Counted from the stretch's first letter, positions 25,741 to 37,845 are shown. The stretch is DNA of 40,432 nt from a bacterium (GCA_029932675.1 JAOZPP010000022.1:1-40432); one strand, 5' to 3'. The notes: a model not told the origin generated them from the letters alone. Translations and numbers: made by a program.

Positions 25741-26019
25741 CCCTCCCCCGCATACTCATAAAAGGAAACCTCCCGCAGACTACAAATCCGCAGGAGGCTG
25801 CAATCATAACACACTTCCCAACCTCGCCTACAGTGCCTCTACCTTTAAGGGGAAGCTGTAGGGACAGGGCTTCCGCCCTGTCCGAAACTCCTTAATTGCT
25901 TTAAGAGCCCTTCTTCCTGTGCTGTCAGGGCTCCTGCCCTGACAGCTCCATAACCTGTCAATATCTATCTATTTTCTGAGGGTGACCCAACCTTCTCCCA
26001 AATCTCCCTGCAAGCTGAG
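25741..26019. repeat. Repeat block left of the ParE pair (gene-free stretch 25705-26087)
   Basis: Contains GGACAGGGC/GCCCTGTCC near 25861-25883, CTGTCAGGGC/GCCCTGACAG near 25922-25945, a GCATACTCATAAAA string, and at 25978-26019 a 42-bp sequence (GAGGGTGACCCAACC.. to ..GCAAGCTGAG) that returns without a mismatch at 26960-27001. The same words occur in another order right of the toxin pair. No gene is supported. Confidence 0.8.
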
Positions 26020-26087
26020 GAAAAGTTACCTTACACCCTTAAGCTCAAGTCTTTGAGGGATAAACGACCTCCGTCCCTGAGCATATC

Positions 26088-26393
26088 TTAGGTATCGCTA
26101 AGATGCTCGAAAGAACCAAGAAGCCTTGCTCCGTGGTGAACCGTCAAAACCTCAACCTCATCGGGAAGCACTCGGTAAATAACCCTGTAGTTCCCTAAGA
26201 TGATCTCCCTTATATCCTCTCGGCCTATCTCCGGTACAATGCGCCCTGAAAGCGGAAATTGCCCAAGCCTTTCTGTCGCCACGAATGCCCGGTCAGCAAA
26301 TATCTCTGCATATCGTGGTGCATCTCGAGCAATGAAAAGACATATTGCTTCTAAATCATCAAGTGCCTGGTCAGTCCAGCTTACCTTAACCAC
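26088..26393 (-). CDS. parE: RelE/ParE family toxin
   Basis: A 101-residue ParE/RelE-fold protein: KVSWTDQALDDLEAICLFIA, then LGQFPLSGRIVPEIGR, IREIILGNYRVIYRV and VEVLTVHHGARLL, the full family pattern (ParE poisons gyrase; RelE cleaves mRNA). The C-terminal FEHL is also typical. The GTG start at 26393 overlaps the antitoxin end by 13 nt with GAGG just before it, a classic coupled order antitoxin-toxin. It looks intact. The pair lies between perfect 42-bp direct repeats. Confidence 0.9.
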   Translation of the reverse strand: MVKVSWTDQALDDLEAICLFIARDAPRYAEIFADRAFVATERLGQFPLSGRIVPEIGREDIREIILGNYRVIYRVLPDEVEVLTVHHGARLLGSFEHLSDT

Positions 26394-26563
26394 TTCCTCA
26401 TCCGCTCTTTTGCTTCTTCTTGAGATACTTTTTGACCAGCATCTGCCTGTTTGATCCCTTGCTCAACTTTATAGAGGAGATACAGCCTTTCCATAGCCTC
26501 TTCAATGGATGCATCCTGGGGAAGCTCTTGAACGACCTTCAAAACCTGTTCCTTCACATTCAT
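26381..26563 (-). CDS. Antitoxin of the ParE/RelE pair
   Basis: A 60-residue, largely helical and charged protein (KEQVLKVVQELPQDASIEEA, MERLYLLYKVEQG, SQEEAKERMRKWLR). Position upstream of and overlapping the ParE gene identifies it as the antitoxin; its C-terminus is the likely toxin-binding part. No clear ribbon-helix-helix or HTH could be assigned. It has its own promoter (26600-26628), which it may autoregulate. Confidence 0.8.
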   Translation of the reverse strand: MNVKEQVLKVVQELPQDASIEEAMERLYLLYKVEQGIKQADAGQKVSQEEAKERMRKWLR

Positions 26564-26599
26564 AAATATCCGCCTCCCATAAATTGTTTAGTTTCAACC

Positions 26600-26628
26600 A
26601 ATATATGCTTTTGGGGAGCAGATGTCAA
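26600..26628 (-). promoter_or_regulatory. Promoter of the ParE/antitoxin pair
   Basis: On the minus strand TTGACA (26628-26623), 17 nt, TATATT (26605-26600), followed by GGGAGG before the antitoxin ATG at 26563. Confidence 0.75.
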
Positions 26629-26711
26629 CAATTATTGGGCTGGTACTACTTGATAATATAAACAAACGGGATAATATGGTAAGTGAACCTCATCCTCTGC
26701 AAGGGAGAAAA

Positions 26712-27001
26712 GGCCTCCTCCCCCTTGATGGGGAAGGAGTAAGGAGAGGTGAGTCCGTGCCCCCAGGCCCCCTGCCCTTAAATATGCTGAGGTGGCAGAA
26801 ACCCCTTTCTGCCACCTCTAATGTGCTGTCAGGGCTTCAGCCCTAACAGCTCCATTATCTCCCTCTCCCGCATACTCATAAAACAGCTGTAGGGACAGGG
26901 CTTCAGCCCTGTCCGAAACTCCAAACATCTCCTCCCCCTTGATAGGGAAGGACTAAGGAGAGGGTGACCCAACCTTCTCCCAAATCTCCCTGCAAGCTGA
27001 G
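26712..27001. repeat. Repeat block right of the ParE pair (gene-free stretch 26629-27096)
   Basis: Two copies of a CCCCCTTGAT-GGGAAGGA-TAAGGAGAG string (about 26721 and 26934), a GGTGGCAGAAA..TTTCTGCCACC hairpin near 26790-26817, CTGTCAGGGC..GCCCTAACAG near 26824-26848, GGACAGGGC/GCCCTGTCC near 26893-26915, and the second perfect copy of the 42-bp repeat (26960-27001). No gene is supported. Confidence 0.8.
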
Positions 27002-27096
27002 CGCCTTCATTTTGCTTTAAGAGCCCTTAACTCCTCAAGCTGACAACCGACACCTGACCGCTGACACCTGATAATCATTTACGATCTACGGCTTCT

Positions 27097-30000
27097 TCAT
27101 CTGATTAGCACCATCTTCTTTGTCTCTACAAAGTCCCCCGCTTCGAGCCTATAGAAGTAGACACCGCTGACCACTTCATTGCCTGATTGGCTCCTTGAGT
27201 CCCAGCGGACTATCTTGTATCCTGCCCTCTGGGACTCATTCACCAAGGTGATCACCTTTTGACCCAGGACGTTGTAGATGGAGAGCTTGACATAGCACTC
27301 CTCTGGCAGAGCATATTTGATCTCGGTAATCGGATTGAAGGGGTTAGGGTAGTTCTGACTCAAAGAGAAAACCTTTGGCAATCCACTCAAAACCCTGTTT
27401 CCCCCCACACCTACATATAAATAGTTTGATAGACCGGACCAGTTGAAAACCTCATCCGCAGTTTTCATGGCGAAGTAGTAGGTAGTGTCCAATGATAAAT
27501 CGGTTACCATGCAGCTATCTTTGGACCCTGCAGGAGAGGGTGTAGGCTCGCCCGATACTGTGTCTGCGTCAGCCCACCAGATGCTATCAGGAACAGTCCC
27601 TAATTCCAAAGTCGAATAACGAATATCATAACAGTAAGCCGTGCCAGTATTTCCGTTATCCCCAGGGGCAGTCCAAATCAAGGTGACCGTACTATCAACA
27701 GGGCCAGTAGTGGCTAAATCCGCTATTGAAGCCGGAGGCGTGGTGTCTATAAGACTAAAGCTCCAATTTAACTGCTGGCACTGCGTTTCCAGCCCATAAC
27801 TATCATAAGCTTTAACTTTCCAATAGATTACAGAATTACCCGGTAATTGGCTTGGGGTTGCATCCGATGCCTGATACTGGCTTTCCTTTAAGCTATATAC
27901 AACGCTTGTTGAACCTGGATTGTAAACCGAACTTGTTCCAAAATAAAGCGTATAGTAGACGCTGTCGTCGGGATCGGATACGAAAGCCTCTTCCCAATCA
28001 AAGGTCAATGTATCGGTATAAATTGTCAGCCCACTATCTGGATAAATAAGGTTAAAAGTGCTTGGTGGCGATTTTATAGTCAAGTGGAGTGGGATTTCAA
28101 AGGAGTTGGAGGAAGTGGAGACATTGACGGTAGCGTAATACTCGCCTGTGGCTATGGTATCGGGGACAAGGATATAACCCTCAATTAGCATAAGAGAATC
28201 TGCCATAAGGTAGGTTGAAGGCAAGTCCGTGGTAATGTTTTCAGAGGGAATTAAATTACCAGCAGAATCCACTATGTCGGAGAAGGTGACGGATATGTCG
28301 CTTACATCCTGCTGCTCGCCAATTTCCTTTATGCCGAAATAGAAACACAGCGAATCCCCCGGAAAAGTCAATTCATCAATCCTGCTGCAAGTGGGTCTTA
28401 ACACAGCGGGGTGAGTCCCGATCTCCGTAAGGTTAACCGAGAAGAAGTCCGAGTCCGTAACAGCCACTCCCTTGACAACTACCTCAAATGTCTTACCTCC
28501 AGATTGAGGAATTCTGATGACTTCTGGATTGGTTCCTGAGCCGGAATAATAGGCTCCGGGTATTTGGACTTCGGGCTCGCCAGTGCTATAGTTCTGCCCA
28601 ACATGTAAACTGTCTTCATCATAGATATGCAGATCCAAGTCACTTCCCTGGAATGTAAGTGAGAATTCTGATGTCACAATGTCCGGGGGGGTTGAAACCG
28701 AGTCGACCACACTTTCACCTTGATGAATAAAGCCTTCAGCTATATTCTGAAACTGATCAGCAGCGCCCAAAATGGCACACCAATATGGAGTAAGACACTT
28801 GAATTCAGTTTTGAAGGGGTATACGTTACCGCTGGTTATGACACGAAAATCAACTAAGTACTTGTCTATCCCTAAAAGGGAATTGCGCGGAAAGGTATAG
28901 GATATTTCAATGTCCTTCTGCTCGTTTGGCTGGAATTCCACAACATCGCTTTTGAGAAAGCCAAGATATTCGACTTCATCCCCCCATATACCACTGCTCA
29001 CTTGGGAAACACCCATAACTACCTGTGCCGTTCCGCTTTTGACCGGGTCGAGGTTGTGAACGGTCACGGTGGCTGTTTGTGTGCCGATATCATTATCGGT
29101 GCAAATATCAGGAGTGTTTGGTGCAGAAATTTTCCATGTCGTCGAGCAGTCATTGAACTGAGGATTCTCTATCGAGCTTTCCACCTCATCCAAGATAGTA
29201 AAATAGAGGCTCATGGCGTTCGCTACATCATCAGGCCAGGAGGCGATCAACTTAGTCAAGAAAATTGCCAAATCTATTTCGCCTTTGAATTGAAGGATTT
29301 CAATAAAATCTGAGGCCAGACAACCTGCTGACCAAGCAAAGAAAACTGCCTCACCCACAGGGCCTGCCACTACAGTGCCAGTAAGCTTGGCAATCAGACC
29401 ACCTGCTTGGCCGGCAACGCAGACGAAATTTTTAACTTCTTTAATTTTCTCCATAGTTTCCAGTTTTTCCTTCTGGTCATGATAGTAATTAACCTGTGTC
29501 CCCGTAGCTCCTAATATCGCATGTTCACTGTTGTCTATGTCACATCTACCTGGCAATCGCCAGTAAGCGGGAACTTCAACATTGCGCGGTCCTCCACCAG
29601 GCTTGGCAAGGGAATAGAAATTCGCAACCTTGTTAATTCTCTCAATCACATCCTCTAATGGGTATGTTTTAGACACAAAAGGAGGGATATTTAGGTTTGC
29701 ATTATAGCTCGCAATTTCGTCTAATGCCTCGCCATACGAGAGGTTCAGTGCTCTATCTTCCAGGATAATCCTAGTCTGGGTATGAAATTCTTCCAGGAGA
29801 AAATTCTGCTTTTGAAATTCAGAATAATTGGCAAAACCTGGCTCGAGGCTATTTTCCAGAAGCTGGACCAATCTGTCCTTCTCTAAGTTCAATATCAATT
29901 TCTTAATTAGCCACACAAGCCCCCCAGAATATGCCATCAAATTACCTCCAGTTACTCCTCTTATTTTCAATAGCTTAGAGATATAGTCTGCACTTATTCT

Positions 30001-32397
30001 TAATCCCGTCAAACTCATTAACTCGCCCAAGAAATCCTTGCCATAGTGATTATTCTCTGACTCATACAGTTGGTGAAAACCGCTACCTGACACATTTGCA
30101 GCCGCACTAACAGTTTCAACTATGTAGTTGTGCACTTTAACTTCTAACTGCTGCAGTGCAAGTACCAAAGGTTCCGTTGAGATGCTGTCAACTGCGCCAA
30201 ACTTGGCCACAAAGGCATCATGATTCCCTCCTGCATAGTCGCTTTGGTAAGGGTTGACCATGGGGAAGTCGGTGGATTTAGTTTCTCCCGTCACATAGGC
30301 GCAGCCTTCGCCATCCACTGCTATGCCACGACCCCAATCATTACCACTCCCCCCCAGGTAGGTGCTGTAGATAAGCGAGGTACCAAAGGCCGATAGTTTG
30401 GTTACGAGGACATCTTCGTCGCCATTTAAATTTCCCTGGTAAGGGTTGACCATGGGGAAGTCCGAAGATGTGGTGAATCCCGTCACATATGCGTTACCTG
30501 AGCCATCCACTGCTATGCCACGACCCCAATCATTACCACTCCCTCCCAAGTAGGTGCTGTAAACGAGGGAATTGCCAGAGGTTGAGAATTTGGTTACAAA
30601 AGCATCAATAGAGCCATCCAAAGTTCCATCATAAGGGTTGGCCGTGGGGAAGTCGGAAGAGTAAGTTTCTCCCGTCACATAGGCGCAGCCTTCTGCATTC
30701 GCCGTTACGCCATAGCCCCTATCTCTACTGCTCCCACCCAGATAGGTGCTGTAGACAAGGGAGATGCCAGAGGCCGAAAGCTTGGTTACAAAAATATCCT
30801 CATAACCATTGAAACCCTCATCATAAGGGTTGACCATGGGGAAGTCGGAGGACTCAGTGTATCCCGTCACATATGCGTTACCTGAGCCATCCACTGCTAT
30901 GCTATAGCCCTCATCGTAATCGCTCCCACCCAGATAGGTGCTGTAGACAAGGGAGCTACCAGAGGCCGAAAGCTTGGTTACAAAACTATCCCAAGCTCCA
31001 TTGTAACTGCCATCGTAAGGATTCTCAGTGGGGAAGTCGGAGAATCCAGTTGCTCCTGTCACATATGCATTGCCTGAGCTATCCACCGCTATGGCATTAC
31101 CCCACTCACCACCGCTCCCCCCCAAGTAGGTGCTGAAGATGAGGGAACTACCAGAGGCCGAAAGCTTGGTTACGAAAGCATCTGCGCCGCCATCCAAGCT
31201 TCCCTGGTAAGGGTTGGCCGTGGGGAAGTCGGAAGAGTAAGTAGCTCCCGTCACATAGGCGCAGCCTTCTGCATTCGCCGTTACGCCATAGCCCGCATCC
31301 CCACTGCTCCCACCCAGATAGGTGCTGTAGACAAGGGAGCTACCAGAGGCCGAAAGCTTGGTTACAAAACTATCCCAAGCTCCATTGTAAGTTGTATCGT
31401 ACCCGCCGGGTGTAGTGGGGAAGTCGAAGGAACTAGTCATTCCTGTCACATATGCATTGCCTGAACTATCCACCGCTATGGCATAGCCATAATCATCGCC
31501 ATAGCCCCCATCAGTGGGGCTCCCACCCAGGTAGGTACTGTAGACAAGCTCCGGATCAATATACAACGGTTGGCTTCGATCGTAATCGTTATCTAAAACA
31601 AAACCAAACTTGGTTCCATCCAAGATTACATAGCGACAGGGTATTTCCCGCCTCTTGCCCCCGATCTTCTGATAGGCATAAGGCACCCGCTCGATGACAT
31701 CACCAAATTTGGTGGAAACCACCAGTTCACCCTGGGTATTAACCGAGAGCGAATTTACGCCATCATACTCTATCCGTATCCGGGAGGGATCAGCGCCCGG
31801 GTTGACGATGAAGTCATACTTCAGGGAATGACCATCGCCGTAATACTTCAGGTCTATCCCCGGGTAGATATCCCGATATTTCACCGCAGAGTAGTTGGGG
31901 ACATCAGTGCGCCACTTGGATGGGTCGTTGCCTAAAAAGTAGTTGCACTTATGGGGAAGCATCCCTTCACCAATGACCTCAGCATCGGGATTGGCCCCCA
32001 CAAACCTGGCCCGAACCAGAAGCCCCTCTCTCTTGTAACGAGGTCTGCGGAATTTGTCCAGGGGATCTGGCATACCAGAGACGCTTGCCCAAGGCCCCAG
32101 TGGTTCATCTATGAGCTCGTCGGTCTCTCGGCTGAAAAGATAAGCTACCTCACCGCCGGCAAAATAGAATGTCGCCCCCGGAGCATTACAGCGGAACTTG
32201 GTCCTCTCCCCAAACTGCCCCTGATTCTCAGTGAACGACAGCGGCATAGAGGACAACTTGGAAACAACCAATTGCCTCTGTGTGGGGGTAGGCTCATTGG
32301 CAAGATTGCTGCCTGGGGCGAGCCTTGCTGCCATAGCACTCCCAACGAGTGCTACGCTCAAAATACAGAGCATTCCTATTAAAAGTCCCTTTTTCAT
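27097..32397 (-). CDS. Large secreted SBBP beta-propeller protein with DUF7948, FnIII and type IX-like sorting domain
   Basis: 1766 residues. Signal peptide [23 protein letters not shown]; a DUF7948-type domain (about 45-290, [38 protein letters not shown]); seven SBBP repeats of about 64 residues ([38 protein letters not shown]), expected to form a beta-propeller. A long helical middle region is of unknown role. Then come Ig-like segments, a fibronectin type III domain ([20 protein letters not shown]) and a C-terminal Por/T9SS sorting domain ([28 protein letters not shown]). The start has GGGGGAAGG upstream. This is a surface or adhesion-type protein, likely exported by the same system as the beta-helix protein at the window start. 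Confidence 0.9.
30180..31560 (-). repeat. Coding tandem repeats (SBBP units)
   Basis: Seven units of about 192 nt (the STYLGGS codons recur at about 189-207 nt steps) with very similar DNA. Two subtypes exist: [13 protein letters not shown] (units 1, 3, 4, 6) and [13 protein letters not shown] (units 2, 5). Unit 7 ([13 protein letters not shown]) combines both. The order suggests that units 2-4 and 5-7 arose by block duplication. Confidence 0.85.
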
Positions 32398-32437
32398 AAT
32401 CCTTCCCCCTCGTTTTGAAAGCTTTTTAGTGTAGTCC

Positions 32438-32573
32438 GTTCCTTTTGGGCAGGGCTGAAGCCCTGTCCCTACGCCTTTTCCACCCAGCTTTAGCTGGGGT
32501 TGTGGGGCTTTAGCCCCATCTTGCGGGCAGGGAGAAAGGGGCCTGAAAGGCCCTTAACCCTGCACTAAAGTGC
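32438..32573. repeat. Composite multi-hairpin element (in gene-free stretch 32398-33017)
   Basis: Five hairpins in about 135 bp: GGCAGGGCT/AGCCCTGTCC (about 32448-32468), CCCAGCT-TT-AGCTGGG (32483-32498), GGGGCT-TT-AGCCCC (32504-32517), GGGCCT-GAA-AGGCCC (32539-32553) and GCACT-AA-AGTGC (32562-32573). The last four recur in the same order at 33931-34064. The rest of the stretch shows a GCAGAAGCCCTCTTCCGC hairpin (about 32956) and the direct repeat listed separately. Confidence 0.8.
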
Positions 32574-32715
32574 GGTAGATTGATTTCAGGGCAGGGGCTC
32601 TCACGCACCGCTCATCTTTCCCATCCCAGACGATCGAGTGCCCTCTACCCCTCCTTCTCCCCCAAAATGTTACAGCTTTAAGCTAACTGCTGATTGCTGA
32701 AGGCAGTATCAGAGT

Positions 32716-32772
32716 CAAAGGGGTCAGGTCTACACATTTGACAATCCGACTCTTTTCTCCTATTCTTGCAAC
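32716..32772. repeat. Direct repeat left of the UPF0175/DUF3368 pair
   Basis: About 56 bp starting AAAGGGGTCAGGTCTACAC and ending TATTCTTGCAAC; the second copy is 33726-33781 with three mismatches. GGGGTCAGGTCTTGC starts again at 32780. Strings of the GGGGTCAGGTCT type are, from memory, often seen beside IS200-like/REP-associated transposons; no transposase is present here. Confidence 0.8.
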
Positions 32773-33017
32773 AAAGTAAGGGGTCAGGTCTTGCTTTTTG
32801 CTATCCTGAGACTACCCTACTTACGCTTGAGTGCTGAACCCCAAAAATCCCCCAACTTCCCTCAGACTCTATCCACTCCCACAGAAAATATCAAGGAAAT
32901 TTCGTCCCTCTACCCTTAGCAAGAGTGTGAACCTGTTCCCTGGATAGCTTGATGTAGCAGAAGCCCTCTTCCGCCATCCATTAACTTTGGCATGCTTTGG
33001 TTAGGGAAGTGTATCAA

Positions 33018-33470
33018 TTATTCATCAGCTAATCTCATTACTTCCTCTTCCATCGCTTCTGAAATCCTAAACTTTGCACATTTGAGCTTTTCTAATACAG
33101 CCTTCACAGAATTTATAATCCCCTCCTGTTTAGCCTTCAAAATAACACCCAATAATCCAGTGAATCTCAAATCCAAATTTTTGGCTAACTTCCTTGCTTT
33201 TTGATCATCCAATATCATCAAACTATCTTCAATCTCGAGAGAAAGGGCTATTGTACTGGCTTCGCCCAAGTCTATCAAATTATTCAATATCTGCAGGTAC
33301 TTCCTGTCTGAAACTTCCTTAATCTCAATCCAATCTGCTAAACTTCTGCCAAACTCATCAAAAACTTCTTCAGTGATATAGATTCTTCCATAAAGCTCTC
33401 TCAATATAGACATCATACCAATATTATCCAAAGTAATCAAACAGCTCGAATTGGAAATCACATTAGGCAT
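33018..33470 (-). CDS. DUF3368 PIN-domain toxin
   Basis: A 150-residue PIN-fold protein of the DUF3368 group: ISNSSCLITLDNIG at the N-terminus (the first acidic residue of the usual xSDxSPLI is Asn), then YITEEVFDEFG, LGEASTIALSLE, LMILDDQKARKLA and LRFTGLLGVILKAKQ. These proteins are predicted RNases paired with UPF0175 antitoxins, which is exactly the neighbour here. ISNSS instead of ISDTS could weaken metal binding. Its start overlaps the antitoxin end by 8 nt. The pair is bounded by direct repeats. Confidence 0.85.
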   Translation of the reverse strand: MPNVISNSSCLITLDNIGMMSILRELYGRIYITEEVFDEFGRSLADWIEIKEVSDRKYLQILNNLIDLGEASTIALSLEIEDSLMILDDQKARKLAKNLDLRFTGLLGVILKAKQEGIINSVKAVLEKLKCAKFRISEAMEEEVMRLADE

Positions 33471-33690
33471 GTTTAAAATCCTTCTCTATTTCTTCTACAT
33501 CATAATTGAAAAGCGAAACCCCATAATCACCAAGTAATTCCATAAAGGTTCGTTTGGAAACTCCCGCTAAGTCCGCGGCTTGTCCAAGGGAGAGTTTCCC
33601 TTCTTCATATAATCTTGAGGCTATGATAAGGGTCAACTCTCTTGGCTCAACATCTACAAAGTCTGGTATACTGATCTGTATCGTCTGCAT
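33463..33690 (-). CDS. UPF0175 antitoxin
   Basis: A 75-residue UPF0175 protein: IPDFVDVEPRELTLIIASRL, YEEGKLSLGQAADLAGVSKRTFMELLGDYGV, an HTH of the family that pairs with DUF3368 toxins and probably represses the operon. AAGGAGG stands 7 nt before the ATG. A clear promoter was not found in the short upstream stretch, which joins the direct repeat at 33726-33781; part of the promoter could lie in that repeat. Confidence 0.88.
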   Translation of the reverse strand: MQTIQISIPDFVDVEPRELTLIIASRLYEEGKLSLGQAADLAGVSKRTFMELLGDYGVSLFNYDVEEIEKDFKHA

Positions 33691-33725
33691 GATGAATCCT
33701 CCTTACCTCTGTTTCTTTGATATTT

Positions 33726-33781
33726 AAAAGGGTCAGGTCTACACATTTGACAATCCGACCCTTTTCTCCTATTCTTGGAAC
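33726..33781. repeat. Direct repeat right of the UPF0175/DUF3368 pair
   Basis: Second copy of the repeat at 32716-32772 (AAAAGGGTCAGGTCTACAC.. to ..TATTCTTGGAAC), offset about 1.01 kb, same orientation, three mismatches. Confidence 0.8.
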
Positions 33782-33894
33782 CGCCTTTCTATATCCACAA
33801 TCTTTTGCCAACTGGCATGAATTGGGGTCAAACCTCTAAATGCCAATTAACACTCTGCACTACGTCTGCTTAATCATATCTATCCGCCCCCTTT

Positions 33895-34064
33895 GGACTC
33901 CGGTAAATCGGAGTCCCTGCGGTTTTTCTACCCGGCTTTTAGCCGAGGGTTGATAGGGTTTTAGCCCGTTTGGAGTGTTGTGACTCCTGTCACAGTATGC
34001 GTCAACAAGAGTTGACGCACACCATAGAGGGCCCCAAAAGGCCCTCAACCCTGCACTAAAGTGC
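33895..34064. repeat. Composite multi-hairpin element (fills most of gene-free stretch 33782-34092)
   Basis: Seven hairpins in about 170 bp: GGACTCCG/CGGAGTCC (33895-33916), CGGCT-TTT-AGCCG (33933-33945), GGG/CCC (33956-33967), TGTGAC-TCCT-GTCACA (33979-33994), TGCGTCAAC/GTTGACGCA (33998-34019), GAGGGCC/GGCCCTC (34027-34046) and GCACT-AA-AGTGC (34053-34064). The order matches 32483-32573 and, inverted, 3405-3515. Confidence 0.85.
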
Positions 34065-34092
34065 AGAATCAGTTCACTTCGGTCCGCTTATT

Positions 34093-34558
34093 TCAATTGG
34101 GGAAACTGCCCAATTTATTCCTAACCTTAAACGGATTGATGAATTCAACTCCTTCAATAACTCGTCCACTTGGGAAATCCTCGGTATAGATCCTTTTGAC
34201 GTCTGCCCTTTTAGCCGCTGCCCAAATTAACGCATCCCAAAAAGAGAATTGGTATTCTATTCTGCCTCTGATAGCCTCCATAACCATTTGAACATAAGGG
34301 GAAATGACCCTCCAGTTAGAGGACAAGGTTCTCTATAATAGATTTAGTATCAGATTTAGTATCTTCCAAGCTGATAATAGGGCTACCAGCGCGTGTAGCT
34401 TCCACAAAAAACTCACACAGCACCTGAATGCTAATCACACCAATAACCTTGTCCCAACACTGCCGCATTAACCCCTTGGCAATCTTTTGTTTAATACCGG
34501 CATCACGGTCATAAGCATAGAGGAGAATATTGGTATCAATAAAGACGCTATCTCACAT
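34093..34558 (-). pseudogene. VapC-type PIN toxin, broken by a stop codon and a frameshift
   Basis: Translating the minus strand from 34552 gives DSVFIDTNILLYAYDRDAG, a typical PIN-domain start with the metal Asp (FIDTN), then IAKGLMRQCWDKVIGVIS and IQVLCEFFVEATRAG. The frame stops near 34322 (IIENLVL-stop) and continues in another frame with SNWRVISPYVQMVMEAI, YQFSFWDALIWAAA and IYTEDFPSGRVIEGVEFINPF, the C-terminal half with its own metal-site residues. The only upstream ATG (34558) is directly followed by TGA; a former CGA (Arg) codon changed by one transition would explain it. With both a nonsense codon and a frameshift the toxin is surely inactive. The antitoxin gene upstream is intact. 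Confidence 0.85.
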
Positions 34559-34769
34559 GGAGTTCATCCCGTGAGCGGTAGTATGACCCACCGCCAAGTT
34601 GAAAGCCCCGATCCATCCGTTCCAACTCCTGTTTCATGGCGACAATGTAAGATTGGTTTCTCTCCTTCTCATCATGAAAGATAACTTCTACCTCAACTCC
34701 CTCTTTTGCCTTTACAGGTTCAAGCAATTCAACAGATTTTCCTCTATATACGCCCTTTACTATGGCCAT
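34548..34769 (-). CDS. DUF104/AF2212-like antitoxin
   Basis: A 73-residue protein beginning MAIVKGVYRGKSVELLEPVKAKEGVEVEVIF (split here for reading: MAIVKGVYRGKSVELLEP, then VKAKEGVEVEVIF), the signature of DUF104 antitoxins that pair with VapC-like toxins. A TTG at 34784 is possible, but GAGGGG 8 nt before the ATG at 34769 supports this start. It overlaps the broken VapC. Intact and with its own promoter, it may persist as a solitary antitoxin. Confidence 0.85.
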   Translation of the reverse strand: MAIVKGVYRGKSVELLEPVKAKEGVEVEVIFHDEKERNQSYIVAMKQELERMDRGFQLGGGSYYRSRDELHVR

Positions 34770-34830
34770 AGTTGTTCCCCTCAATTAAAGAACCTTAATT
34801 CACCCAATTCCTCTTGAACCTTACCTCTAT

Positions 34831-34859
34831 AATTTAAGTAAACTCCTGTGATTTGTCAA
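34831..34859 (-). promoter_or_regulatory. Promoter of the DUF104/VapC pair
   Basis: On the minus strand TTGACA (34859-34854), 17 nt, TAAATT (34836-34831), about 60 nt before the ATG at 34769. Confidence 0.7.
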
Positions 34860-34915
34860 CAGATTCTCTTTACAATCTTGATTGAATCCCCACGAGATAA
34901 TCAATCCAGGGAAGA

Positions 34916-35170
34916 GGTGGCAGAAGCCCTCTTCTGCCACCTTCTCCTTTGCCGTTAGAACAGGGGTTCTGACGATTCAGGGAGGGAGTTCTAACCGCTC
35001 AGCCGCCATAACCCTGCACTAAAGTGCGGTAGAACCCCTTCTACTCGGTTTTAACTCTTGGTTCCTCGGAGGGTGGCAGAAGCCCTCTTTTGCCGTCAGA
35101 ATCGGGGTTCTGACGGCTCAGGGCTATTTTCTATTTCCCATCTTTTGGGGGAGGAACCCTGACGGCACTG
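34916..35170. repeat. Hairpin cluster (part of gene-free stretch 34860-35738)
   Basis: GGTGGCAGAAG-CCCT-CTTCTGCCACC (34916-34941, 11-bp stem), a second GGTGGCAGAAGCCCTC near 35072 that runs on into TTGCCGTCAGAA..TTCTGACGG, and ACCCTGCACTAAAGTGC (35011-35027), which also occurs at 34048-34064 and 32557-32573. Between 35400 and 35563 I see nothing but AT-rich sequence; 35678-35738 is short and plain. Confidence 0.75.
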
Positions 35171-35187
35171 GTCCTGCAATGCAGCTA

Positions 35188-35231
35188 AAAAAACCGGCCT
35201 GCCTTGATTTAATCCTTCGGCAGCCCGGCTA
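35188..35231 (-). terminator. Intrinsic terminator of leader 1
   Basis: GCCGGGCTGCC (35230-35220) pairs with GGCAGGCCGG (35204-35195), then seven T on the minus strand. The 5' strand is also the 3' strand of the proposed aptamer. Confidence 0.75.
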
Positions 35232-35354
35232 TATGATGTTATTTGACCAGCAGCTCAAGGATACCACCTTGAGCCCTGTGGCTTTGTCCCTCCTGATTCC
35301 TCCCTCTCCCGCTTTGTTTGCCGAGAAAGTTGTGATCTTTAATCATCGGAATCT
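35188..35354 (-). ncRNA. Structured leader RNA 1, GEMM-I (c-di-GMP) riboswitch-like, with terminator
   Basis: Transcribed leftward from the promoter at 35361-35389. Conserved blocks shared with leader 2: CTCGGCAAAC, GGAGGGACAAAGCC, ACAGGGCTCAA, AGCCGGGCTGCCGAAGGA. CTCAAGG/CCTTGAG forms a stem, and CGGCA near the 5' side can pair with TGCCG at the 3' side. The 3' strand can alternatively pair with GGCAGGCCGG, followed by TTTTTTT (35188-35194), a typical riboswitch-terminator switch. The GGCAAAC, ACAAAGCC and GCCGGG-TGCCG elements recall GEMM-I aptamers, but the usual GGGACGCAAAGCC is shortened and the P1b hairpin is not clear. The next gene leftward, at 34769, is about 400 nt away and has its own promoter. 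Confidence 0.5.
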
Positions 35355-35360
35355 ATGTTA

Positions 35361-35389
35361 AAATAGCAAACTACCACCTCTCTGTCAAG
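35361..35389 (-). promoter_or_regulatory. Promoter of leader 1
   Basis: On the minus strand TTGACA (35389-35384), 17 nt, TATTTT (35366-35361). Confidence 0.75.
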
Positions 35390-35562
35390 AAATTTTCACA
35401 TTCAGACTCATTTCTTATTAATCCGTTGGAAAACAGTGAGATATGGGTTCATAATTTGGCAATAGAGGGGAAGCTTTTTGAGTGTTTTGGGCATCTCTCC
35501 AATAAAAATAAAGCAGACAAGAGATCTCCAACTATGGCAACCTCAACGCCCTATCCCTCAGA

Positions 35563-35677
35563 TCTATTCTGGACACATATAGATCCAGATTTTGCAATCA
35601 CTCCAATGGGGGAAAGCTTCGTCAGGGCAGGAGCCCTGACGACACGGAGGAAATCTCAATGACTTGAGTTAATCTGC
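35563..35677. repeat. Direct repeat left of the DUF2283 pair
   Basis: About 115 bp; the first 44 bp (TCTATTCTGGACACATATAG.. to ..CACTCCAA) are identical to 36524-36567, and similarity runs on to AATCTGC. Contains the hairpin CGTCAGGGC-AGGA-GCCCTGACG (35620-35641). Confidence 0.88.
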
Positions 35678-35738
35678 ATCCCATAAGGTTTACCAAAAAA
35701 GCGAAATTCAATTAAGCGGGTTCAAATTACGCTATATC

Positions 35739-35969
35739 CTACTTCTCCGATATACTCTTGGCATTTAAAACAGTCACCCCAACAAGTTGCTCCCCATCGT
35801 AATGGTAAATAAAATTCCCTTCCATAATACTATCATCGGCACATTGAGGCTTCCGAAAACTAATATACAGGGTATCCGTCTCTTCATCATAATCGACCCA
35901 ATAATGGTTTCCGTCAAGTTTTAAAAGATGAGGAATAACAGATGTATCGAATTCTTTTACTTTGCCCAT
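35739..35969 (-). CDS. DUF2283 protein (probable antitoxin)
   Basis: A 76-residue DUF2283 protein: WVDYDEETDTLYISFRKPQ, DDSIMEGNFIYHYDGEQLVGVTVLNAKSI, the family's compact beta fold. DUF2283 proteins often accompany small RNase-like toxins. Its ATG lies inside the end of the upstream gene (overlap 13 nt), so the order is toxin-like gene first, the reverse of the other pairs here. Confidence 0.85.
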   Translation of the reverse strand: MGKVKEFDTSVIPHLLKLDGNHYWVDYDEETDTLYISFRKPQCADDSIMEGNFIYHYDGEQLVGVTVLNAKSISEK

Positions 35970-36289
35970 ACAACTCCCCTCCTCTTAATTGTTCCGGGCC
36001 TGGAAGTCAAGAAGGCTGTAATGATAAACCCCTCTTCTTTATCCTCTCTGTAAACAACAACACAGTACTTTTGTGTGATATTCGTTTCGTCATAATACTT
36101 TAAGGCAAGAAGTTCACCTTTTAGACCTTCTACAATGCAGTCTGGTGAACTTACTGTCTCCATAATTTTGTCTATATTCCCCGCCATATAGTCATGAGAT
36201 TCGACAATATGAAACCACTGCTTGAGGGTCAGACGGATTGCCTTACCAGAGACGGATTTCGTAGTTTCAAGGATTTCTATCTTCTGCAC
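35957..36289 (-). CDS. Putative BECR-fold RNase toxin (DUF4258/PBECR-like)
   Basis: A 110-residue protein: IRLTLKQWFHIVESHDYMAG (H in a WxHI..H context), NIDKIMETVSSPDCIVEG, KYCVVVYREDKEEGFIITAFLTSR. This arrangement (early His, C-terminal TAF.TSR strand) recalls Barnase-EndoU-ColicinE5-RelE-like nucleases. The family assignment is from pattern memory and not secure. GTG start at 36289; an in-frame TAA lies 9 nt upstream, so no longer form exists. Promoter at 36371-36400. Partner: the DUF2283 protein overlapping its end. Confidence 0.7.
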   Translation of the reverse strand: MQKIEILETTKSVSGKAIRLTLKQWFHIVESHDYMAGNIDKIMETVSSPDCIVEGLKGELLALKYYDETNITQKYCVVVYREDKEEGFIITAFLTSRPGTIKRRGVVWAK

Positions 36290-36370
36290 TCCCTTTTACT
36301 CACCCTGTTTATCCTTTTCCCATCAAGAGATATCATACAATCTTCTCCTACAAATTCTCCTCTTCTACTA

Positions 36371-36400
36371 AATATACACCCTATTGCCCTAAAATGTCAA
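36371..36400 (-). promoter_or_regulatory. Promoter of the DUF2283 pair
   Basis: On the minus strand TTGACA (36400-36395), 18 nt, TATATT (36376-36371); leader of about 75 nt to the GTG at 36289. Confidence 0.7.
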
Positions 36401-36523
36401 GATCCTTCATGGGGCTTCAATCTGTGTTCCATCACAACCTACGAGGTCGGAGCTGCAGTTCACCTCCCCTTAGTCCTCCCCCATCAAGGGGGAGGGAATC
36501 GTCCGGAAGGCCAGGAAGTCATT

Positions 36524-36629
36524 TCTATTCTGGACACATATAGATCCAGATTTTGCAATCACTCCAAGGGGGGAAAAGCCCCGTCAGGGCAGGAGCCCTG
36601 ACGGCACAGAATGACTTGCGTTAATCTGC
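36524..36629. repeat. Direct repeat right of the DUF2283 pair
   Basis: Second copy of 35563-35677, same orientation, offset 961 bp, including the CGTCAGGGC/GCCCTGACG hairpin. The stretch 36401-36782 otherwise holds a CCTCCCCC-ATCAA-GGGGGAGG hairpin near 36476-36496 and the promoter at 36688-36716. Confidence 0.88.
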
Positions 36630-36716: not shown

Positions 36717-36782
36717 GACTCTTTGGGGAAAATGCTAAGGTTGGATGTTATAGTGGGTTAGGCTGAGGGTAGGTAGCTCACA

Positions 36783-37215
36783 CTATGGGCGCTCCAATAG
36801 AACTTCTCCGATAGCATAGTCGCAGATTAGGCGAAAACGGTTGATAATATCGCGGCCTAGGACCGAGGGAAGTGGCAAGAGCCGGGAAACTTCCCCAGGG
36901 GTAACTGATCAAGGTCATGTTGGGTGACCCAAATGTCCTGCTGAAGCAAGAAGTCGCCTTCACTCGTGGCAAAAGCTATCTCTACATCCCGCAAAACGAA
37001 TGAACGGACGCTCCCTCCGATCCCAACAATAGGTATCTCCGCGGGCACCAGTGCCTTCAGAGGAATCCCCAGAAGTTTTATATCACGGTCAAGAAGCGTG
37101 GTCCTGGCTGCGCACCCGTGTCAGCCAAAAGCCAACTTGTTCCTTCAAACCAAACTGACCTAAGATGAACTGCAAAATATGGTGCATCGGCAACGAAATG
37201 TCCACGAATAATCAT
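36783..37215 (-). pseudogene. Retropepsin-like aspartyl protease, two frameshifts
   Basis: The gene starts MIIRGHFVADAPYFAVHLRS (ATG at 37215), reaches the catalytic motif LLADTGA, and is then shifted by one base. The next frame gives RTTLLDRDIKLLGIPLKALV, PAEIPIVGIGGSVRSFVLRD and LQQDIWVTQHDLDQLPLG; after a second one-base shift near 36895 it ends RLLPLPSVLGRDIINRFRLI..VLLERP-stop. This is a complete single-domain retropepsin-like protein (DTG, then LGRDII) split over three frames. The ATG overlaps the stop of the DUF5678 gene (ATGA). Sequencing error is possible, but two shifts make decay likely. Confidence 0.85.
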
Positions 37216-37442
37216 AGAATCATCTCTAAGGGCTCGCGGGTTATGAACTCTATACAGGTATGCGCAGGATTTGACAACTTATTCCTCAATCTCATTAAAT
37301 CAGAGTCACTTGCAATAACCTGATAATTCCTCACCCCAATCCATTGATCAGCATATTTCTCAAACAAATCATCAAAATTCTCATATACCCAAATGTGGTC
37401 ACTTTCAAAATCGAGAATCTCCTTAGTCAATTGCTCAGCCAT
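37212..37442 (-). CDS. DUF5678 protein, partner of the retropepsin-like gene
   Basis: A 76-residue protein: MAEQLTKEILDFESDHIWVY, ENFDDLFEKYADQWIGVRNYQVIASDSD, LMRLRNKLSNP, matching DUF5678 (ENLEELxEKYxGKWVAI..KVIA). The frame is open to 37601, but AAGGAGG 7 nt before the ATG at 37442 fixes the start. DUF5678 genes often stand before aspartyl-protease-like genes, as here with ATGA coupling. The pair's function is unknown; a toxin-antitoxin-like arrangement is an inference. Confidence 0.8.
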   Translation of the reverse strand: MAEQLTKEILDFESDHIWVYENFDDLFEKYADQWIGVRNYQVIASDSDLMRLRNKLSNPAHTCIEFITREPLEMIL

Positions 37443-37685
37443 GCTAAAGCCTCCTTGTTTAGTAAATACCTTTAATGTGGGGCTCTCTGGAAGTGTGTGG
37501 GAATAACCTGCTTTATTAACGGGATAGAATAGCATTGGTATAGTTCTCCTCTCTGGTGATGGGAGAGAATTAGATAAAAAACGGGTATCACCCTCACCCA
37601 CCCATCAAGGGAGAAGAGGCTGTTTCGGATGCCCACCCTACAGGAGAGAAGTTAACTGTCGGGTCAACTTTCCAGGTCTCTCAGA

Positions 37686-37845
37686 TGAAAGAAAAGCCTG
37701 CCTTAATTTGGTCCTCCGACAGCCCGGCTGTCGTGTGCTATTGATTTCCGACCCAAAGAGATATTGTTGAGCCCCATGGCTTTGTTCCTCCTCAACCATT
37801 TCCCCCCTTTGCCAGGAAACTCTTCGTCTTTATCCTCGGGATCTG
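37686..37845 (-). ncRNA. Structured leader RNA 2, GEMM-I (c-di-GMP) riboswitch-like, with terminator
   Basis: Same architecture as leader 1: promoter (37852-37880), AGATCCCGAGGATAAAGA near the 5' end, CCTGGCAAAG, GGAGGAACAAAGCC, ATGGGGCTCAAC, AGCCGGGCTGTCGGAGGA. GTTGAG/CTCAAC forms a stem. TCCT..GGCA can pair with TGTC..AGGA, changed from leader 1 in a way that keeps pairing (G-U and G-C). AAGGCAGGCT followed by TTTCTTTC gives the alternative terminator (37686-37730). The DUF5678 gene is about 245 nt downstream and could be the controlled gene. Confidence 0.5.

What the first reader, a model, noticed from the sequence alone, without database searches (positions are those of the whole stretch)
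25978..36629. Three toxin-antitoxin pairs each sit between direct repeats offset by about 1 kb
ParE/antitoxin lies between 42-bp repeats (offset 982), UPF0175/DUF3368 between about 56-bp repeats (offset about 1010), and DUF2283/BECR-like between about 110-bp repeats (offset 961). The repeats differ between modules, but the design is the same: repeat, small operon with its own promoter, repeat. The DUF104/broken VapC pair also lies between copies of AACCCTGCACTAAAGTGC (34047 and 35010, offset 963). This suggests a capture or exchange mechanism for small operons that uses flanking hairpin repeats, for example recombination or non-autonomous transposition.
Basis: partly seen in the sequence, partly recalled or inferred. 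Interest (0 to 1): 0.75.

Follow-up and report, generated by a model that had tools for sequence, protein, structure and literature searches.

The report
Toxin-antitoxin islets bracketed by direct repeats
In this uncultured bacterium, small toxin-antitoxin gene pairs sit between two same-direction DNA copies about a kilobase apart far more often than chance allows, which suggests that these "addictive" gene pairs are gained and lost by recombination at the repeats, as is already known for restriction-modification genes.

Summary
The repeats are real. ParE/antitoxin lies between 42-bp copies (100%, offset 982), UPF0175/DUF3368 between 56-bp copies (95%, offset 1009) and DUF2283/PBECR2 between 116-column copies (85%, offset 961). 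The AACCCTGCACTAAAGTGC repeat is weaker: a dispersed 6-copy element, three copies in this window. In 1.39 Mb sampled from this 3.03-Mb genome, intergenic regions under 3 kb apart share direct repeats about 16-fold above background (30 direct, 1 inverted; background 447:453). Two-gene TA-like units are bracketed in 9/24 cases against 7/289 other units (6/21 vs 7/280 without the window). In contigs not chosen for repeats, the direct-only excess holds (9:0) but the TA enrichment is not significant (1/7 vs 2/101). At two loci with orthologues in a same-genus genome, that genome lacks both module and repeats. In Microcystis, HicAB lies between 56-bp copies, and a relative has one copy and no HicAB; another TA-like module sits inside a 97-bp duplication of a toxin gene's 5' end. 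No attC-like boxes or shared ends were found. Best reading: TA islets gained and lost at direct repeats, akin to "insertion with long target duplication" of restriction-modification genes, and kept by addiction. The mechanism is inferred.

The parts
25978..26019 (.). Repeat X1, left copy (42 bp)
   Evidence: Identical to 26960-27001; no other copy in the genome at E<=0.001
26088..26393 (-). ParE toxin (101 aa)
   Evidence: PF05016 6.2e-19; RelE/StbE TIGR02385 just above its cut-off
26381..26563 (-). 60-aa antitoxin-like partner, overlaps parE
   Evidence: ORF and coding score; no Pfam family above cut-off
26600..26628 (-). sigma-70-like promoter TTGACA-17-TATATT of the ParE operon
   Evidence: Consensus match only
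26960..27001 (.). Repeat X1, right copy
32556..32573 (.). Dispersed 18-bp element AACCCTGCACTAAAGTGC, copy 1 of 3 in the window
   Evidence: 6 copies genome-wide with up to 2 mismatches
32717..32772 (.). Repeat X2, left copy (56 bp); holds TTGACA-17-TATTCT on the + strand
   Evidence: 95% identical to the right copy
33018..33470 (-). DUF3368 PIN-like toxin (150 aa)
   Evidence: PF11848 4.9e-13; PADLOC PDC-S70 1.2e-39
33463..33690 (-). UPF0175 antitoxin (75 aa)
   Evidence: PF03683 1.2e-20
33726..33781 (.). Repeat X2, right copy
   Evidence: in the sample of this genome the motif GGTCAGSYCTNNACATTTGACA is matched without mismatch only at both X2 copies and one copy of the L076 repeat
34047..34064 (.). 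Dispersed 18-bp element, copy 2
34093..34555 (-). VapC-like PIN gene in pieces (34093-34326, 34316-34468)
   Evidence: PF01850 0.014 on one piece; no single open frame
34548..34784 (-). DUF104/AF2212-like antitoxin (78 aa)
   Evidence: PF01954 0.021, below cut-off
35010..35027 (.). Dispersed 18-bp element, copy 3
35563..35677 (.). Repeat X3, left copy: about 55 bp found only at this locus, then a dispersed GTCAGGGCAGGAGCCCTGAC palindrome, then a tail
35739..35969 (-). DUF2283 protein (76 aa)
   Evidence: PF10049 4.9e-10
35957..36289 (-). PBECR2-like nuclease (110 aa)
   Evidence: PF18810 1.3e-4, below cut-off
36371..36400 (-). sigma-70-like promoter TTGACA-18-TATATT
   Evidence: Consensus match only
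36524..36629 (.). Repeat X3, right copy

Best explanation
Each TA pair is a small accessory islet bounded by direct repeats that arose from, or were used in, its insertion. An incoming fragment that carries the operon joins the chromosome in an intergenic region by homologous or illegitimate recombination and leaves a 40-200 bp sequence on both sides, as described for restriction-modification units (insertion with long target duplication); for repeats that belong to a dispersed family, a crossover of a [TA + repeat] circle with a resident copy gives the same product. Recombination between the copies can delete the islet and leave one copy. Loss of a TA operon is costly to the cell (addiction), so TA islets survive between such repeats and build arrays. 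Shown: repeats, direct orientation, locality, TA enrichment in the sample, module and repeats both absent at two orthologous sites of a same-genus genome, filled and empty alleles plus duplication of coding DNA in Microcystis. Inferred: the molecular steps, their direction in this genome, and the role of addiction.
For: Direct 30 vs inverted 1 within 3 kb, about 16-fold over background, background 447:453; unselected contigs 9:0. Gene-direction bias of dispersed repeats is only 220:144, too weak to explain this. TA-like units 9/24 vs 7/289 bracketed, p=1.5e-7; without the window 6/21 vs 7/280, p=7e-5; flank-length-stratified permutation p=2.5e-4, window included. Arrays of different TA families between copies of one repeat (L120, L065). 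G001 orthologous sites: permease to next gene 48 bp where G000 has a 4.1-kb TA array; 125 bp where G000 has X-MNT/HEPN-X; no repeat detected in either. Microcystis L251/L264 carry HicAB between X copies, L270 has one X and no HicAB; L270 also has a 97-bp 99% copy of the DUF5615 5' end across a 72-aa/retropepsin module. Flanked TA-like operons average 40.5% GC against 49.4% for genes. The same signature is published for RM units (PMC3874152, PMC3031569).
Against: In the two readable G001 sites no single repeat copy remains, so the repeat was not a conserved target there, although intergenic divergence or later loss is possible. Several repeats belong to dispersed families (L064, L065, L069, L075), so repeat-to-repeat crossover may replace target duplication. 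Non-TA genes are bracketed too. Many sampled contigs were chosen because they carry repeats; in unselected contigs the TA enrichment is not significant (1/7 vs 2/101), and it is not significant for DUF433/DUF5615 loci of other phyla. No empty site is known for the window's own three modules. The Microcystis repeat at HicAB recurs in those loci, so its empty allele may be a deletion product.
Confidence: 0.55

Rival explanations
1. Survivorship: local direct duplications arise all over the genome by a TA-independent process (for example slipped or unequal recombination); segments between them are normally deleted, but segments with a TA pair persist because deletion is toxic. The TA link is then retention, not insertion.
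For: Bracketed non-TA units exist, so the duplication process is not TA-specific. In a P. syringae plasmid, neutralising the TA systems raised deletions between two directly repeated MITEs about 50-fold (PMC6354349).
Against: Does not explain arrays of different TA families between copies of one repeat, nor the TA-like module inside a duplicated toxin-gene 5' end. Broken modules (L105 PIN pieces, the window's VapC) still have flanking repeats.
Confidence: 0.23
2. Coincidence of two intergenic tenants: TA pairs and REP/MITE-type repeats both collect in long intergenic regions, and flanking copies match by chance.
For: The genome is rich in dispersed palindromes (74 GGCAGAA-TTCTGCC matches in the sample, both strands counted, 72 intergenic) and has three Y1/RAYT-type transposase genes, one flanked by such palindromes. 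A mild gene-direction bias exists (220:144).
Against: Predicts nearly equal direct and inverted flanking copies; found 30:1 locally and 447:453 elsewhere. X1, L067, L068, L076 repeats have no other copy in the sample.
Confidence: 0.1
3. Tandem duplication of [repeat + TA] followed by loss of the second TA copy.
For: Gives direct repeats of any length with no special ends.
Against: Predicts tandem TA duplicates in the genome; among 23 TA loci tested the only near-complete DNA-level paralogue pair (85%) lies on different contigs. Arrays hold different TA families.
Confidence: 0.07
4. A dedicated cassette system (integron-like or an unknown recombinase) or a non-autonomous transposon moves the TA operons.
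For: Array layout and operons with their own promoters resemble TA cassettes of superintegrons. X2 and the L076 repeat, both around UPF0175/DUF3368, share a motif in the same orientation.
Against: No attC-like box pairs, no shared inner ends, unrelated repeats at different loci, variable distances from repeat to gene. The shared motif is weak (z 4.5 among many comparisons).
Confidence: 0.05

Closest known systems
Insertion with long target duplication of restriction-modification units (Nobusato 2000; Furuta 2010; summarised in PMC3874152 and PMC3031569)
   Same: Addictive two-gene unit between direct repeats of variable length, of the order of 100 bp, not linked to a known mobile element
   Different: Here TA pairs instead of RM genes; in the two G001 sites the empty allele lacks the repeat; some repeats are dispersed elements
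TA cassettes of Vibrio superintegrons (PMC2654758)
   Same: TA operons with own promoter in arrays separated by repeats; stabilisation argument
   Different: No attC-like boxes in ten tested repeat pairs, repeats unrelated between loci, module-to-repeat distances not fixed
TA systems that guard segments between directly repeated MITEs (P. syringae plasmids, PMC6354349)
   Same: TA between direct repeats that recombine, and TA opposes deletion
   Different: There a plasmid with a 228-nt MITE and an 8.3-kb interval; here intervals of about 1 kb on ordinary contigs, often with repeats of only two copies
REP elements and RAYT (Y1) transposases
   Same: Intergenic palindromes and three Y1_Tnp genes occur in this genome
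   Different: REPs alone predict both orientations; several module repeats are not REPs

Membership tests
Insertion with long target duplication | Direct repeats of tens to hundreds of bp on both sides of the unit | tested here: met
Insertion with long target duplication | Empty site in a relative holds one copy of the repeat | tested here: inconclusive
   Met for HicAB in Microcystis; not met at two G001 sites, which have no copy; untestable for the window's modules
Insertion with long target duplication | The repeat is target DNA, not a mobile element | tested here: inconclusive
   97-bp copy of a coding start in Microcystis; private repeats at several loci, but dispersed families at others
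Integron gene cassettes | attC sites with RYYYAAC / GTTRRRY boxes next to each gene | tested here: not met
   No box pair in either copy of ten repeat pairs
Integron gene cassettes | IntI integrase gene in the genome | not tested
Composite or non-autonomous DNA transposon | Common terminal sequences at the ends of the moved segment | tested here: not met
   Inner ends of ten modules share no sequence
REP/RAYT elements | Palindromic intergenic repeats present in many copies in both orientations | tested here: inconclusive
   True for the palindrome inside X3 and for L065/L069 repeats; X1, L067, L068, L076 have two copies only in the sample

The most novel reading that the evidence does not exclude
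TA pairs in repeat-rich bacterial genomes are a general class of self-retaining islets that move without any recombinase of their own: captured between direct copies of whatever DNA lies at the insertion point, assembled into arrays, and lost again by repeat recombination, so that local direct repeats give a family-independent signature of TA gain and loss.
Probability: 0.25. Interest if true: 0.75.

Novelty: new variant of a known kind. Interest (0 to 1): 0.5.

Why it matters
How chromosomal TA pairs enter genomes without a visible mobile element is an old open question. A direct-repeat signature makes it testable across genomes, links TA pairs to the published route for restriction-modification genes, and separates insertion from retention by addiction. 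In the library searched, five papers hold both terms 'toxin-antitoxin' and 'long target duplication'; in the three of them I read in part it is cited for restriction-modification units. I found none that reports it for TA pairs, but most subscription journals are not held.

Tried and rejected
Empty sites for the window's own modules: the flanking DUF3857 gene has no close relative in the genus-mate (best 27%). L120 and L076 flanks gave no usable orthologue in G001; ComM gave orthologues in G002 and G003 without similarity beyond the gene. X2 in viral contigs and plasmids: nothing. Site-specific cassette and transposon ends: rejected. Cross-phylum TA enrichment with DUF433/DUF5615: random windows gave 0/205, but a fairer control of other ORFs in the same loci gave 12/218 against 5/68 for TA, so that claim was dropped. 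Genomes G015 and G003 show no local direct excess; in G001, with little sequence, one of two cases lies beside a gene that looks like cas4 and has CRISPR-like repeats by eye.

Full report
Check of the observation. Pfam confirms ParE, UPF0175/DUF3368, DUF2283/PBECR2 (PBECR2 below its cut-off) and a weak DUF104 hit with a VapC in pieces. PADLOC names UPF0175/DUF3368 as the candidate defence pair PDC-S70. The 18-bp element at 34047/35010 has a third window copy at 32556 and six copies genome-wide, so it is a dispersed element rather than a private repeat. Promoter consensus matches sit between operon and upstream repeat in three of four modules.

Is it more than chance? The window is contig C84 of a 3.03-Mb genome. 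I took stretches of that genome, 1.39 Mb with the window, called genes with a simple hexamer model and compared all intergenic regions. Between different stretches, repeats of at least 45 bits occur in both orientations alike (447 direct, 453 inverted; about 0.034 per million base pairs squared each). Within 3 kb they are 30 direct and 1 inverted, about 16-fold above background. Dispersed repeats have only a mild bias relative to gene direction (220:144). Contigs not chosen for repeats give 9 direct and 0 inverted. Local direct duplication is therefore real here.

Is it tied to TA pairs? Two-gene units with proteins of at most 175 aa were used as a blind proxy for TA pairs. They are bracketed by direct repeats in 9 of 24 cases, other units in 7 of 289 (p = 1.5e-7); without the window 6/21 and 7/280 (p = 7e-5); a permutation within classes of flank length, window included, gives p = 2.5e-4. 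Outside the window the bracketed modules include CopG/PIN, MNT/HEPN (three), DUF104/VapC, UPF0175/DUF3368, DUF433/DUF5615, DUF5615, and a HicB-like gene with a nucleotidyltransferase (the last named by eye). Caveat: many sampled contigs were chosen because they carried repeat hits; in the unselected contigs the strict count is 1/7 against 2/101 (p = 0.18), partly because the L105 modules escape the proxy. Non-TA units are bracketed as well (rhomboid, T9SS-type proteins, YhcG nuclease, ATPases).

Anatomy. Repeats differ between loci and fall into two kinds: sequences with two copies only in the sample (X1, X2, most of X3, L067, L068, L076, L105b) and members of dispersed REP or MITE-like families (L064, L065, L069, L075). 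L120 and L065 are arrays in which different TA families alternate with copies of one repeat. Distances from repeat to operon vary from about 10 to about 1,460 bp. No attC-like boxes and no shared inner ends were found. Two TA paralogues (L064, L065; 85% DNA identity) are alike only over the operon and about 35 bp upstream. Bracketed TA-like operons are AT-rich (mean 40.5% GC against 49.4% for genes), as expected for acquired DNA. A 103-bp gene fragment (its reading as cas6-like is mine and found no Pfam match) brackets a DUF6036/HTH module at L091 131-2891.

Empty sites. In the genus-mate G001, orthologues of the genes on both sides of two modules could be read. The permease and the next gene are 48 bp apart where G000 carries a 4.1-kb array of three modules; and 125 bp separate the orthologous stretches where G000 carries X-MNT/HEPN-X. 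No copy of the repeats was detectable in either site. So module and repeats are gained or lost together there, and the repeat was not a conserved target. In Microcystis, found through the DUF433 search, two genomes carry HicAB between 56-bp copies (in one of them an OrfB/IS605-type gene lies within the module) and NIES-4325 has a single copy with no HicAB; in the latter a 72-aa/retropepsin module lies inside a 97-bp, 99% duplication of the DUF5615 toxin gene's 5' end. The second case is a long duplication of coding target DNA.

Mechanism and known systems. The signature matches insertion with long target duplication, described for restriction-modification units with variable duplications of the order of 100 bp (PMC3874152, PMC3031569). 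TA systems are known to oppose deletion between directly repeated MITEs (PMC6354349) and to stabilise superintegrons (PMC2654758). Makarova et al. (PMC2701414) report recent insertions or deletions of MNT-HEPN modules between close relatives, and a search of that text for 'repeats' found none. I therefore propose acquisition and loss at direct repeats with retention by addiction; which recombination route makes the repeats is not shown. Membership in the RM-type process is inconclusive, because the single-copy empty site was seen in Microcystis but not in G001.

Noticed in passing
window 37715-37807 and 35215-35313, - strand: Two diverged copies (67% over 202 bp) of a leader that matches c-di-GMP-I riboswitches below the gathering score (18.4 and 12 bits); a full c-di-GMP-I-GGC riboswitch (68 bits) lies at L077 13951-14039. 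They look like decayed riboswitches near the DUF5678/retropepsin-like and DUF104 genes.
   Followed up: partly
window 36778-37601, - strand: A retropepsin-like reading frame (my reading, apparently interrupted) next to a DUF5678 protein (PF18929, below cut-off), a fifth small TA-like module in the 32.4-38.4 kb gap.
   Followed up: no
window 30245-31548, - strand: Seven repeats of about 192 bp (64 aa) in tandem inside the 1766-aa protein with a T9SS-type C-terminal sorting motif.
   Followed up: no
L005 1-1000: A Y1/RAYT-type transposase gene flanked by direct copies of two palindromes (33/693 and 69/727), the likely source of the commonest intergenic palindrome family.
   Followed up: partly
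L293 948-1385: At the G001 site that lacks the MNT/HEPN module a GxxExxY-like gene is inserted nearby, flanked by CCACAGAG-type sequences in inverted orientation; the same intergenic region seems a hotspot.
   Followed up: no
L088 8616-8803 / about 11479: The one local inverted pair: a 188-bp element at 98.9% identity with about 16 other matches in the sample, probably a recently active MITE.
   Followed up: no
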